In this document: positions 22,677 through 31,878 of the stretch, piece after piece
Position numbering within the stretch: the first letter of the stretch is position 1
How the letters are laid out: each line of letters opens with the position of its first letter
Origin: Meridianimarinicoccus roseus
GTDB taxonomy: Bacteria > Pseudomonadota > Alphaproteobacteria > Rhodobacterales > Rhodobacteraceae
DNA: 64,000 nt
NCBI RefSeq assembly: GCF_003172915.1
Contig: NZ_QGKU01000048.1
Coordinates: forward strand, 248,001 to 312,000
Direction: 5' to 3'
Made by a program: the position numbers and the translations under genes
The notes under the pieces: generated by a model
The model's database searches: none
What the model was told of the DNA's origin: nothing
The model's input: the letters and a program-made list of their open reading frames with translations, nothing else

Positions 22677-24365
22677 ATGAGCAACGATCTGTCCGCCAAC
22701 CGTAACGCCGATCTGGTGATGGACCAGCAGTCCTACGAAGGCGATCCACTGGAGAACCGCGAAACCGACCGCTATCGCGCAGAATACGTGATGAGTTTCG
22801 TGGAAAAGTGGGACGAGTTGATCGACTGGCAGGGACGTGCCACCAGCGAAGGACAGTTTTTTATCGACATTCTGCGCGCTCGCGGCAAGGAAAGTGTGCT
22901 CGACGTGGCAGCGGGTACCGGCTTCCATTCCGTGAGGCTGACGGAGGCGGGGTTCGATGTGACCACCGCCGACGGGTCGGCCGCGATGCTGGCCAAGGCC
23001 TTCGCCAATGGACAAAGACGCGGTCTGATCCTGAAAACGGTGCAAGCCGACTGGCGCTGGCTGAACCGGGACATCAAGGGCAAGTACGACGCGATCGTTT
23101 GCCTTGGCAATTCCTTCACCCATCTGCACGAGGAAAAGGATCGCCGCCGCGCGCTGGCCGAATACTATGCCGCACTGAAGCATGATGGCATTTTGATCCT
23201 CGATCAGCGCAACTATGACGCCATGCTGGACAGCGGTTTTTCGACCAAGCACAAGTACTACTACTGCGGCGACAAGGTCACGGCAGAGCCGGATCACGTG
23301 GACGAAGGGCTGTGCCGGATGCGCTACAGCTTCCCCGACGGGTCGTCGTATACTCTGAACATGTGCCCGATCCGCAAGAACTACATGCGGCGGCTGCTGC
23401 ACGAGGCCGGGTTCGAGCGCGTGCGCACCTACGGGGATTTTCAGGAAACCTATGCCGAGGGCGAGCCGGATTTCTTCATCCATGTGGCCGAGAAGTCGTC
23501 GCTTCATCTGGTGCGCTGGGGCGGACAGTCGGAAGACGGAACCGACATCCGCACCGTAACCGAGGATTACTACGACAGTGACGATGCGGACCTGTTCTAT
23601 TCGACGATCTGGGGCGGCGAGGACCTGCATATCGGCGACTATAGCGAGACGAAGGTCATCCGCGAGGCGTCGGACCGGATCGTCTACAAGATGCTCGACA
23701 AGCTTGACGGGCTGGGTACGGACAGCTGCGTGCTGGACCTTGGGGCGGGCTATGGCGGCGCGATGCGCAAACTGGTCAAGAAGACCGGGGCGCAGGCGGT
23801 TTGCCTGAACATTTCGGAGACGCAGAACGACTACAACCGCGCGAAGATCCGTGAAGCCGGGCTTGGCGATGCGATCACGGTGCGCCACGGCGTGTTCGAG
23901 GACGTCCCCGAGGAGGATGGTACTTTCGACGTGGTCTGGTCGCAGGATGCATTCCTGCATTCGGACCAGCGCGGCAAGATCCTGGCCGAAGCGTTCCGCG
24001 TGCTCAAGCCGGGCGGCACGCTGATCTTCACCGATCCGATGCAAGCCGACGACGTCGCGCCCGGAACGCTTCAGCCGGTTTATGACCGGTTGCAACTGAA
24101 CGACCTCGGGTCGATGCAGTTCTACCGGCAGGCGGCAGAGGTCGCGGGCTTCGCGCTGGTCGAACAGGAGGACTTGCTGGAGAACCTGCGCACCCATTAC
24201 GCCCGCGTTCTTGAAGAGCTTCAGTCGAACGAGGACAAGTTGCGCGATGCCGGCGCCTCGCTGGAATATCTCGGGAAGATGGCCACCGGGTTGCAGAACT
24301 GGATCACGGCGGCGGATGACGGGCATCTCGCCTGGGGCATCCAGGTTTTCCGCAAGCCGGGCTAG
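22677..24365 (+). CDS. Fused glycine/sarcosine N-methyltransferase and sarcosine/dimethylglycine N-methyltransferase
   Basis: Predicted to convert glycine through sarcosine and dimethylglycine to glycine betaine, using three SAM. At 562 residues it holds two Rossmann methyltransferase domains. The GSMT-like half has SAM motif [22 protein letters not shown] (near residue 75) and [10 protein letters not shown]. The SDMT-like half, from about residue 300, has [15 protein letters not shown] (near 352) and [13 protein letters not shown]. Length and domain order match fused GSMT-SDMT enzymes of halophiles. It is first in an operon with methionine synthase, metK, ahcY and an adenosine kinase, which supply SAM and remove SAH. 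The ATG after GGAG was chosen over one ten codons earlier. Confidence 0.92.
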
Positions 24366-24478
24366 GCGCGCTTCGTGTGCGCAAGGTGCCGCTGGATTAC
24401 AGCGGCACGCTGTTATATTGCGTCGTCATGAAAAGTGGGGTTTTGCCCCCGCCGGGCGGCATCGAACAAGGACATTCC
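24366..24478 (+). promoter_or_regulatory. Structured leader between the methyltransferase and metH genes
   Basis: The 113-base gap contains a perfect hairpin, GTGCCGCTG-GATTA-CAGCGGCAC (24386-24408), followed by TTATATTG and a second GC-rich hairpin around GGGGTTTTGCCCC (about 24437-24449). The first has no T-tract long enough for a strong terminator. It could be an attenuator, a processing site or an RNA switch. No SAM-I, SAM-II or SAH riboswitch consensus was matched. Confidence 0.5.
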
Positions 24479-25546
24479 ATGACAAAGGCGACTGATCTAG
24501 AACTGGAAGCCGCCAAGCGTATCCTCGTGCTGGACGGTGCGATGGGCACCATGATCCAGACCCGCAAGCCGGACGAGGCGACTTATCGAGGCGCGCGGTT
24601 TGCGGATCACCCGCAGGATGTGGGCGGAAACAACGAGCTTCTGAGTCTCACGCAGCCCGACATGATCCGCGAGATCCATGCCGATTTCCTGAATGCGGGA
24701 GCGGACATCCTGTGCACCAACACCTTCGGTGCCAATGCGATCAGCCAAGCCGACTACGGCATGGTGGACCTGTCGTTCGAAATGAACGTGGCCTCGGTGA
24801 AGCTGGCGCGCGAGGCGGCGCAGCAGGCCGCGCCAGACCGCAAGGTCTGGGTCGCGGGGGCCATCGGCCCGACCAATCAGACAGCGTCGATCAGCCCGGA
24901 CGTGAACAACCCCGGTTTTCGGGGCGTGACCTTCGACCAGTTGGCCGATGCCTATGGCGAGGCGGCGCGAGGGCTGATCGAGGGCGGGGCCGACATCATC
25001 CTGATCGAAACGGTTTTCGACACACTGAACGCCAAGGCCGCTGTCTATGCTGTCGAAGCGCTGCGCGACGCGGGCGTGGACGTGCCGCCTGTCATGATCT
25101 CGGGAACGATCACCGACCGGTCGGGCCGAACCCTGACAGGGCAGACGCCAGAAGCTTTCTGGGCGTCCATGAGCCACGCGCGCCCTTTTTCCGTGGGGCT
25201 CAACTGCGCGCTCGGCGCCGCCGAGATGCGCCAGCACATCCGCACCCTGTCGGGCGTCGCCGATACGCGCATCAGCGCCTATCCGAACGCGGGCCTGCCC
25301 AACGACATGGGCGGGTATGACGAAACCCCGCGCGAGACATCCGATCACATCGGTGAGTGGGCCGATGCCAGTCTGGTGAACATCGTCGGCGGCTGCTGCG
25401 GCACGACCCCCGACCACATCGCCGCCATCGCCGCGGCGGTGAAGGGCAAGGCCCCGCGCAAGGTGCCAGGCAAGGTCCGGCACATGCGGCTCTCCGGCCT
25501 CGAGATGTTCGACCTGCCCGGCCCCGACATGGAGGGCGCCGCATGA
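24479..25546 (+). CDS. metH: Methionine synthase, homocysteine-binding part (MetH N-terminal domain as a separate protein)
   Basis: Homocysteine S-methyltransferase barrel of 355 residues. N-terminal signature [12 protein letters not shown]; zinc-binding cysteines at about residue 243 (GLNCALGA) and in [10 protein letters not shown] near 305. In classical MetH this barrel is the first of four modules; here it is its own gene and its stop overlaps the start of the next gene (ATGA), which carries the remaining modules. The ATG with AAGGA upstream was used; in-frame starts further upstream would run through the leader hairpin. It remethylates homocysteine released by AhcY. Confidence 0.92.
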
Positions 25547-30869: not shown

Positions 30870-30888
30870 GGAAAGGCGGGGCGGCGCG

Positions 30889-31878
30889 ATGCCGCCCCGA
30901 CACCAGCACATGAGCAAGTCACAACCGCAAATCGCCGGCATCGGAAATCCGCTGGTGGACGTTCTCGCGTCGGTCGGGCCTGATGCGCCGGGCAAGCATG
31001 GCCTGACGGTGGGCGAGATGCATCTCGTTGATGCCGCGACGGCCAAGGCGCTTTATGCCGATATCGGACCGGGCATCCAGCAGTCCGGCGGGTCGGTCGC
31101 CAACACGATCGCCCATGTCGGTGATATGGGTCTGAAAGGCACGTTCCTCGGCAAGGTGGCTGGCGACGATCTTGGCGGGGTGTTCCGCCGGGACATGGCC
31201 GCACTGGGAATCGACGTTCCGGTGCCCGATCAGGCCGATGGCACCGCGACGGGCCACTGCGTGGTCATGGTCACACCCGACGGCGAACGCACGATGTCCA
31301 CCTATCTTGGCGCCTGCGAATGCCTGGCGCCGGACGATCTGCCCGAAACGCTGCCCAGCGAGACGGCGATCCTATTGGTCGAGGGGTATCACTTCGACAC
31401 CCCGCACGGCGCGGCGAATGTCGCGCGCGCGGTCGAACTTGCACGCGGCGTCGGTGCACGGATCGCGCTTACGCCGTCCGATGCGGCCTGCGTGGACCGT
31501 CAGCGCGCGGCCATGCTGGCTTTGATCGAAGGCGAGTGCGACATCTTGATCGGCAACGAGCTGGAACTTGCGGCGCTGTCCGGGGCGCAGGACCCGATGT
31601 CGGCACTGCACTGGGCGCTCGATCACGTGCGCACCGTGGCGCTGACCCGGTCCGAGAACGGTGCGTTGCTGGCCGATGGCGGCCCGGTGGTCGAGGTCGC
31701 GGCCCAGCCGGTACCGAAGGTCGTGGATACCACCGGTGCGGGCGATGCTTTCGCTGCCGGGTTCCTTTCGGCGCTGGCGCTTGGCAAGGACGTGGCCGAA
31801 GCCGGCCGGGCAGGGGCATCGCTTGCCGCCCGCGTGATCGGTCACTTCGGCGCGCGCGAAGCCGGCACTGCGGCCTGA
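30889..31878 (+). CDS. PfkB-family kinase, probable adenosine kinase
   Basis: A ribokinase-fold sugar/nucleoside kinase of 329 residues. PfkB features: GGSVANTIAHVGDMG near the N-terminus and the catalytic DTTGAGDAFAAGF near residue 280. Phosphorylating adenosine to AMP is inferred from its place directly after ahcY, where removing adenosine pulls SAH hydrolysis forward; many alphaproteobacterial adenosine kinases have this sequence type. Two starts are possible: the ATG used here has AGGAAAGG 12 bases upstream; a second ATG 21 bases later (MSKSQPQIAGIGNP) fits the family N-terminus. Last gene before a strong terminator. Confidence 0.88.
   Translation: MPPRHQHMSKSQPQIAGIGNPLVDVLASVGPDAPGKHGLTVGEMHLVDAATAKALYADIGPGIQQSGGSVANTIAHVGDMGLKGTFLGKVAGDDLGGVFRRDMAALGIDVPVPDQADGTATGHCVVMVTPDGERTMSTYLGACECLAPDDLPETLPSETAILLVEGYHFDTPHGAANVARAVELARGVGARIALTPSDAACVDRQRAAMLALIEGECDILIGNELELAALSGAQDPMSALHWALDHVRTVALTRSENGALLADGGPVVEVAAQPVPKVVDTTGAGDAFAAGFLSALALGKDVAEAGRAGASLAARVIGHFGAREAGTAA

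What the first reader, a model, noticed from the sequence alone, without database searches (positions are those of the whole stretch)
22677..31878. Glycine-to-betaine operon carrying its own complete activated-methyl cycle
Seen: a fused GSMT-SDMT-type methyltransferase, two-part methionine synthase, metK, ahcY and a PfkB kinase on one strand with short gaps, ending in one strong terminator. Known: glycine methylation to betaine uses three SAM and is inhibited by SAH. Inference: the operon is a self-contained methylation unit in which SAH is split by AhcY, adenosine is removed by the kinase, homocysteine is remethylated by MetH and SAM is remade by MetK. Methyltransferase genes are often found with one or two of these genes; the full set in order is notable, and de novo betaine synthesis is unusual for Rhodobacteraceae, which mostly take up betaine or oxidise choline.
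Basis: partly seen in the sequence, partly recalled or inferred. Interest (0 to 1): 0.8.

Follow-up and report, generated by a model that had tools for sequence, protein, structure and literature searches.

The report
Betaine operon holding the only metK
A salt-protection operon that turns glycine into betaine, of a kind already described in related bacteria, here seems to hold the cell's only gene for making its general methyl donor (SAM), the usual self-regulated copy having been lost, which would tie all methylation in the cell to an osmotic-stress operon.

Summary
The six genes are real, in the stated order, and end at a strong terminator. The first is a fused GSMT-SDMT: the glycine/sarcosine half passes its curated cut-off and keeps ten residues named in the MpGSMT structure paper; the SDMT half fits by homology but misses its NCBIfam cut-off. 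Such clusters are already in print for Rhodobacteraceae (PMC7824335, 2020). The usual metF is missing here, so "complete" holds for the SAM cycle only.

"Its own" cycle is wrong in a more interesting way. The genome shows one metK and one strong ahcY, both in this operon. Relatives normally keep a metK behind lnt with a SAM/SAH riboswitch (riboswitch in 63 of 67 sampled genomes without GSMT). Of 9 genomes with an operonic metK, 6 keep both copies; 3 (this one, a congener, Tranquillimonas rosea) have only the operonic one, no riboswitch match, and lnt lying 31-43 bp before trmB. The metK tree puts the window's gene among operon metKs: the housekeeping gene was displaced. Methionine synthase, in contrast, is doubled: a native Mtg-type (betaine-demethylating) set remains. 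No activity, transcript or salt response was tested.

The parts
22677..24365 (+). fused glycine/sarcosine and sarcosine/dimethylglycine N-methyltransferase (GSMT-SDMT), 562 aa
   Evidence: NF051855 465.7 bits, cut-off 350; NF041675 286.1 bits, cut-off 550 not reached; PDB 5gwx E 4e-118, 2o57 E 1e-63; ten MpGSMT residues kept
24366..24478 (+). 113-bp gap with a 9-pair hairpin (24386-24408); metF stands here in many relatives
24479..25546 (+). metH1: homocysteine-binding part of cobalamin methionine synthase
   Evidence: PF02574 327 bits; matches MetH 4-346
25543..28209 (+). metH2: folate-, B12-binding and reactivation domains of methionine synthase
   Evidence: PF00809, PF02607, PF02310, PF02965; TIGR02082 1183.8 bits, over its cut-off
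28251..29438 (+). metK, SAM synthetase; the only one found in the genome
   Evidence: TIGR01034 506.8 bits; single in own genome
29463..30869 (+). ahcY, S-adenosylhomocysteine hydrolase; the only one over the cut-off in the genome
   Evidence: TIGR00936 599 bits
30910..31878 (+). PfkB-family kinase, probable adenosine kinase (alternative start 30889)
   Evidence: PF00294 152 bits; best PDB match 3ubo adenosine kinase, E 6.8e-58
31920..31949 (+). terminator hairpin, overlapping the 3' end of the convergent gene at 31934-32569 (-)
17559..21931 (-). divergent gcvT-gcvH-gcvP (glycine cleavage); neighbourhood, not part of the operon
   Evidence: named from the translations (recalled families, not scanned); also divergent in L046
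21991..22154 (-). two glycine riboswitch aptamers in tandem, upstream of gcvT
   Evidence: RF00504 68.6 and 40.4 bits, gathering 32

Best explanation
The operon makes glycine betaine: the fused enzyme adds three methyl groups to glycine, using three SAM and leaving three SAH; AhcY splits SAH to homocysteine and adenosine; the PfkB kinase traps adenosine as AMP; MetH1/MetH2 remethylates homocysteine with methyl-folate made by the off-operon MetF; MetK remakes SAM. Shown: gene identity by homology, order, copy number. Inferred: every catalytic step, co-transcription and salt control. What sets this genome apart is that the operon's metK has displaced the housekeeping metK that in relatives stands behind lnt under a SAM/SAH riboswitch. 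The operon therefore supplies SAM and clears SAH for the whole cell, without that riboswitch, and must be expressed at a basal level also without salt stress. The native split Mtg-type methionine synthase, whose kind also demethylates betaine in Ruegeria, was kept, so the operon adds a second methionine synthase that does not belong to the betaine-degrading route.
For: Family scores and PDB matches; ten MpGSMT residues kept. One metK, one ahcY over cut-off, one MetH activation domain, one metF in the own genome, rated 100% complete. In 80 genomes: riboswitch in 72, each 21-35 bases 5' of a metK; 63 of 67 without GSMT; of 9 with operonic metK, 6 have two metK with the riboswitch only at the off-operon copy, 3 have only the operonic one and no riboswitch, none at E<=1 either. 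lnt-metK adjacent in 21 of 21 riboswitch genomes without GSMT (trmB follows in 14) and in 12 of 14 further off-operon metK loci; in the three, lnt-trmB with 31, 32 and 43 bp between. metK tree: 45 operon rows against 34 housekeeping rows, branch support 99. A corrinoid protein of Mtg type besides MetH in 9 of 9 operon genomes; mtgE, mtgC, DUF1638, MTTB genes together in the own genome.
Against: No expression or enzyme data. SDMT half under its NCBIfam cut-off. Hairpins at two junctions may split the transcript. 4 of 67 genomes without GSMT, and G083, also lack a riboswitch match, so its absence alone proves nothing. The ahcY tree does not separate operon from housekeeping copies; the window's ahcY falls, weakly, among housekeeping ones, so ahcY may be the native gene moved in. 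The metK tree is of the quick kind and warns of long rows (L045, L183).
Confidence: 0.7

Rival explanations
1. A dedicated methylation unit beside a normal housekeeping cycle: other copies of metK and ahcY exist but were missed or lie in assembly gaps.
For: Six of nine genomes with operonic metK do have two metK; the assembly has 69 contigs.
Against: Completeness is rated 100% and the usual metK site is intact and empty inside a contig, 32 bp between lnt and trmB, with the same picture in two further genomes.
Confidence: 0.07
2. Two transcripts: the fusion is a salt-induced gene ending at the hairpin 24386-24408, and metH1-metH2-metK-ahcY-PfkB is a constitutive housekeeping SAM-cycle operon behind its own promoter; the two are merely neighbours.
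For: 113-bp gap with a hairpin and a TA-rich tail; essential genes need basal expression; the gap is loosely conserved in the congener.
Against: metK, metF or metH1 follow the fusion directly in 48 of 80 loci, across several families, so the linkage is kept by selection; no promoter-like site was found on the + strand here.
Confidence: 0.25
3. The fusion makes mainly sarcosine or dimethylglycine, or acts as a SAM overflow valve like animal GNMT, rather than making betaine.
For: The SDMT half scores 286 bits against a cut-off of 550, and no fusion among 23 scanned can reach it (best E 2.6e-106).
Against: The same shortfall holds for the whole fused class, of which the Actinopolyspora enzyme is a betaine maker by literature (recalled; PMC7824335 passage cites it); the half matches 2o57 (putative SDMT) over its full length, model TM 0.90 to it.
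Confidence: 0.08
4. The native riboswitch metK itself moved into the operon and lost its riboswitch, rather than being displaced by an operon-type metK.
For: The copy number and empty site alone would fit; ahcY may have moved in that way.
Against: The window's metK sits inside the operon clade, apart from all 34 housekeeping rows.
Confidence: 0.05

Closest known systems
fusedMT-MTHFR-MS-MAT-SAHase clusters of Rhodobacteraceae (PMC7824335: Roseivivax roseus DSM 23042, Roseovarius nitratireducens; passages and section 3.2 seen)
   Same: Fused methyltransferase first, then methionine synthase, metK, ahcY in the same order. DSM 23042 is the strain number of Tranquillimonas rosea, so the published cluster is probably that of G331/L068.
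   Different: No MTHFR here; the kinase is not named there; copy number, riboswitch and displacement are not in the passages seen.
Methanohalophilus portucalensis betaine cluster sams1-sahh1-gsmt-sdmt-adk (PMC3176816, PMC5201303; passages seen)
   Same: SAM synthetase, SAH hydrolase and adenosine kinase with GSMT and SDMT.
   Different: Archaeal, enzymes not fused, no methionine synthase mentioned, a second SAH hydrolase near by.
Halorhodospira GMT-DMT-MAT-SAHase-MTHFR cluster (PMC7824335)
   Same: Betaine methyltransferases with SAM-cycle genes; same stated logic of SAH removal.
   Different: Not fused, methionine synthase elsewhere.
SAM/SAH riboswitch-metK of Rhodobacterales (PMC4239095, passages: 13 of 15 genomes)
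   Same: The gene whose role the operon metK has taken.
   Different: Riboswitch and locus are gone here.
MtgBCDE methionine synthase/betaine methyltransferase (PMC12478193, abstract, passages and part of Results seen)
   Same: Present elsewhere in this genome: mtgE-, mtgC-, DUF1638- and MTTB-family genes.
   Different: The operon's MetH is the classical kind with activation domain, split in two.

Membership tests
Glycine/sarcosine N-methyltransferase (NF051855) | whole-protein score over the curated cut-off of 350 bits | tested here: met
   465.7 bits
Glycine/sarcosine N-methyltransferase (NF051855) | active-site, cofactor and betaine-contact residues named for MpGSMT (Y26, W34, W40, R43, N134, H138, R167, Y185, Y206, M218) | tested here: met
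   10 of 10 at the aligned positions (residues from passages of PMC5146677; numbering offset worked out by me)
Sarcosine/dimethylglycine N-methyltransferase (NF041675) | score over the curated cut-off of 550 bits | tested here: not met
   286.1 bits; 23 of 23 fusions match, best E 2.6e-106, still far below
Sarcosine/dimethylglycine N-methyltransferase (NF041675) | makes betaine from dimethylglycine | not testable with these tools
   needs an assay
Rhodobacteraceae fused-MT betaine operon (PMC7824335) | fused GMT/DMT followed by MS, MAT and SAHase in order | tested here: met
Rhodobacteraceae fused-MT betaine operon (PMC7824335) | MTHFR between the fusion and MS (present in two of the four listed species) | tested here: not met
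   113-bp gap without a gene; metF on contig C7. Rhodosalinus in the same table also lacks it, so it is not defining
Rhodobacteraceae fused-MT betaine operon (PMC7824335) | salt-induced, one transcript | not testable with these tools
   no RNA data
SAM/SAH-riboswitch metK of Rhodobacterales | RF01727 just upstream of metK | tested here: not met
   no match in the own genome at E<=0.001 or E<=1, none in 21700-32100 at E<=5
Classical cobalamin methionine synthase MetH | all four modules plus activation domain PF02965 | tested here: met
   spread over two overlapping genes
Adenosine kinase (PfkB) | specific family model over cut-off | tested here: inconclusive
   no NCBIfam model over its cut-off; best PDB match is named adenosine kinase, the second (4e3a) sugar kinase

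The most novel reading that the evidence does not exclude
A stress operon has captured the cell's central methyl-donor supply: after gaining the betaine operon, two Rhodobacterales lineages separately discarded the riboswitch-governed metK, so that SAM for all methylation now comes from an osmolyte operon, while the operon's classical MetH keeps methyl flow into betaine apart from the native Mtg methionine synthase, whose kind takes methyl groups off betaine.
Probability: 0.35. Interest if true: 0.68.

Novelty: new variant of a known kind. Interest (0 to 1): 0.5.

Why it matters
If the operonic metK and ahcY are truly the only ones, DNA, RNA, protein and lipid methylation in this organism depend on an operon presumed to answer to salt, and SAM/SAH sensing by RNA has been given up. 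That makes a clear, testable case of an accessory stress operon becoming essential. The pairing of a classical MetH for making betaine with an Mtg set of the betaine-demethylating kind also suggests why these operons bring their own methionine synthase although the host has one.

Tried and rejected
Searched for a SAM, SAH or other riboswitch inside the operon: only the glycine aptamers on the other strand scored. Tested whether AhcY too is of a separate operon type: the tree is mixed and weak. Tested whether adenosine kinase simply travels with ahcY: no PfkB match in 19 of 19 ahcY neighbourhoods away from the operon (15 without GSMT, 4 with; L205 reaches a contig end). One contig of G282 (L152) does carry ahcY with a PfkB piece off the fusion's contig; both it and the operon contig break inside ahcY, so it is probably the operon's continuation; it was not counted. 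A tree of lnt and trmB to place the two losses did not resolve. The AU test rejects one clade for the three sole operonic metKs (p 0.0001), but the group was tested after I had seen the quick tree, and separate operon lineages do not by themselves prove separate losses. A structure model of the fusion was good only for the SDMT half (mean pLDDT 69), so it adds nothing on the GSMT half.

Rows dropped or mislabelled: in the trees the unnamed duplicates L034-L044 and the divergent L186 were left out; G083's metK (L179) was labelled with the genomes without GSMT although G083 has the fusion. The 80-genome set was chosen by me from the 394: 12 with GSMT, G067 with a weaker homologue, and 67 without, picked for few contigs and high completeness, so it is not a random draw. 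Of 541 relatives of the fusion only the best 80 were fetched. mtgD and the RamA-like activator were not looked for in the own genome.

Print: searches (open-licence PMC only) listed no paper that links a betaine operon with loss of the riboswitch metK; absence elsewhere cannot be claimed.
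Full report
Observation. The reported genes are where they were said to be. Pfam and NCBIfam name them: fused methyltransferase 22677-24365, metH1 24479-25546, metH2 25543-28209, metK 28251-29438, ahcY 29463-30869, PfkB kinase to 31878. The terminator at 31920-31949 is strong. Two further hairpins lie in the gap behind the fusion and between ahcY and the kinase. No sigma-70-like promoter was found on the + strand in 20000-34500, though that scan covers one promoter type only.

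The fusion. Residues 17-273 match Methanohalophilus portucalensis GSMT (5gwx, E 4e-118) and 282-560 the putative SDMT 2o57 (E 1e-63). The GSMT half passes NF051855 (465.7 over 350 bits); the SDMT half stays under NF041675 (286 against 550), as do the 23 fusions scanned, whose best E-value is 2.6e-106. Ten residues that passages of PMC5146677 name for MpGSMT are present; nine of them are invariant in 23 fusions, the tenth (M229 here) is not in the invariant list. A model puts the SDMT half on 2o57 (TM 0.90 to the target); the GSMT half is of low confidence.

The organism. Whole-genome search finds one congener among 394 family genomes. Its contig length and content equal those of Phycocomes zhengii (L046; fusion 89% identical), now Meridianimarinicoccus in NCBI taxonomy.

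How common. 12 of 394 family genomes pass the GSMT cut-off. In the named collection 541 stretches encode a relative; of the best 80, 48 have metF, metH1 or metK straight behind the fusion, 26 have metF there, 21 have ahcY in the run, 11 of these then PfkB, and 9 have metH1-metH2-metK-ahcY-PfkB (8 with metF, and P. zhengii without). 32 of 80 have none of these genes behind the fusion. The set is therefore a known, variable cluster: PMC7824335 (passages and section 3.2) lists fusedMT-MAT, fusedMT-MS-MAT and fusedMT-MTHFR-MS-MAT-SAHase in Rhodobacteraceae. Adenosine kinase in a betaine cluster is also on record, for M. portucalensis (PMC5201303, passage).

Not an extra cycle. In the own genome (4.29 Mb, 69 contigs, rated 100% complete) metK and the MetH activation domain each occur once and ahcY once over the cut-off, all in this operon; metF occurs once, on another contig beside a LysR-type gene that resembles metR. 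A second ahcY match is weak and not over the cut-off.

Displacement of metK. In a chosen set of 80 family genomes every genome has a metK. The SAM/SAH riboswitch is found in 72, once each, and always 21-35 bases upstream of a metK. All 67 genomes without GSMT have one metK; 63 have the riboswitch. Nine genomes have a metK in the betaine operon: six keep a second metK elsewhere, and in six of six the riboswitch is at that second copy only; three (own genome, P. zhengii G341, T. rosea G331) have the operonic metK alone and no riboswitch, also at E<=1. Three other GSMT genomes (G083, G233, G142) have no operonic metK. Against over-reading: four GSMT-less genomes and G083 lack a riboswitch match yet keep a metK.

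The empty site. In 21 of 21 GSMT-less riboswitch genomes examined lnt stands directly before metK, and trmB follows in 14; of 14 further off-operon metK loci 12 have lnt before it and 10 have both. In the three genomes lnt runs into trmB with 32 (own), 31 (P. zhengii) and 43 bp (T. rosea) between stop and start (counted from the printed letters). The own site lies within contig C22, so an assembly gap does not explain it.

Trees. 79 metK proteins split into 45 operon rows and 34 housekeeping rows, support 99, branch 0.41 (quick method, with a long-branch warning for L045 and L183). The window's metK is in the operon part, nearest to P. zhengii. The three sole operonic metKs are not one clade (AU p 0.0001), which suggests two displacements; a lnt-trmB tree is unresolved. 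ahcY is not split this way: the window's ahcY falls, with weak support, among housekeeping ones, so the operon may be a mosaic.

Methionine synthase is doubled, not displaced. Only 16 of 80 family genomes have a MetH activation domain; nine of the 16 are the operonic ones. All nine also keep a separate corrinoid protein. In the own genome this lies with a betaine-homocysteine-methyltransferase-type gene (564 bits, cut-off 338), a DUF1638 gene and an MTTB-family gene. This is the make-up of the split methionine synthase of Phaeobacter (PMC5764234, passages) and of the MtgBCDE set that also demethylates betaine in Ruegeria (PMC12478193, abstract, passages and part of Results). The corrinoid protein is under the NCBIfam MtgC cut-off (195 against 370). 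My inference: a cell that builds betaine gains from a methionine synthase that is not tied to betaine breakdown, which would explain why the operon brings a classical MetH.

Neighbourhood. gcvT-gcvH-gcvP runs the other way behind two glycine aptamers. Among the 80 named loci only P. zhengii shows gcv genes near the fusion (many contigs are short). So glycine breakdown and glycine methylation start back to back in this genus, a likely point of joint control that was not tested.

Verdict. The cluster is of a known kind; the loss of the riboswitch metK and the dependence on the operon copy is a new variant as far as the searches made can tell.

Noticed in passing
window 21991-22154 (-): Tandem glycine riboswitch before gcvT, back to back with the glycine-methylating operon; shared with Phycocomes zhengii (L046) only among the 80 named loci.
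   Followed up: partly
window 22340-22356 and L046 upstream of the fusion: A short stretch reading TGTCGCAAAAC(A/T)ATCAC is kept between the two congeners in an otherwise diverged upstream region; possible control site.
   Followed up: no
L186 (Rhodosalinus, G062:C5): A third, divergent MetK-like protein (about 33% identical, 261 bits, under the metK cut-off) in a genome that already has two metK.
   Followed up: partly
L045 (G067:C28): A stand-alone GSMT-like gene (41% identical) with a transporter-like gene and its own divergent metK, ahcY piece at the contig end; may methylate something other than glycine.
   Followed up: no
L076, L078, L089, L095, L097, L098, L103, L105: Fused GSMT-SDMT in Fulvimarina, Chelativorans, Devosia, Mesorhizobium and Aquamicrobium, although PMC7824335 found none in Rhizobiales.
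   Followed up: no
L101, L109: Metagenome bins named Anaerolineae and Competibacteraceae carry fusions 71% and 76% identical to the window's; wrong binning is likely.
   Followed up: no
L169:8396-10272 (own genome C7): metF divergent from a LysR-type gene resembling metR, as PMC4239095 passages describe for Rhodobacterales.
   Followed up: partly
window 12019-12103 (+): tRNA-Leu gene.
   Followed up: no
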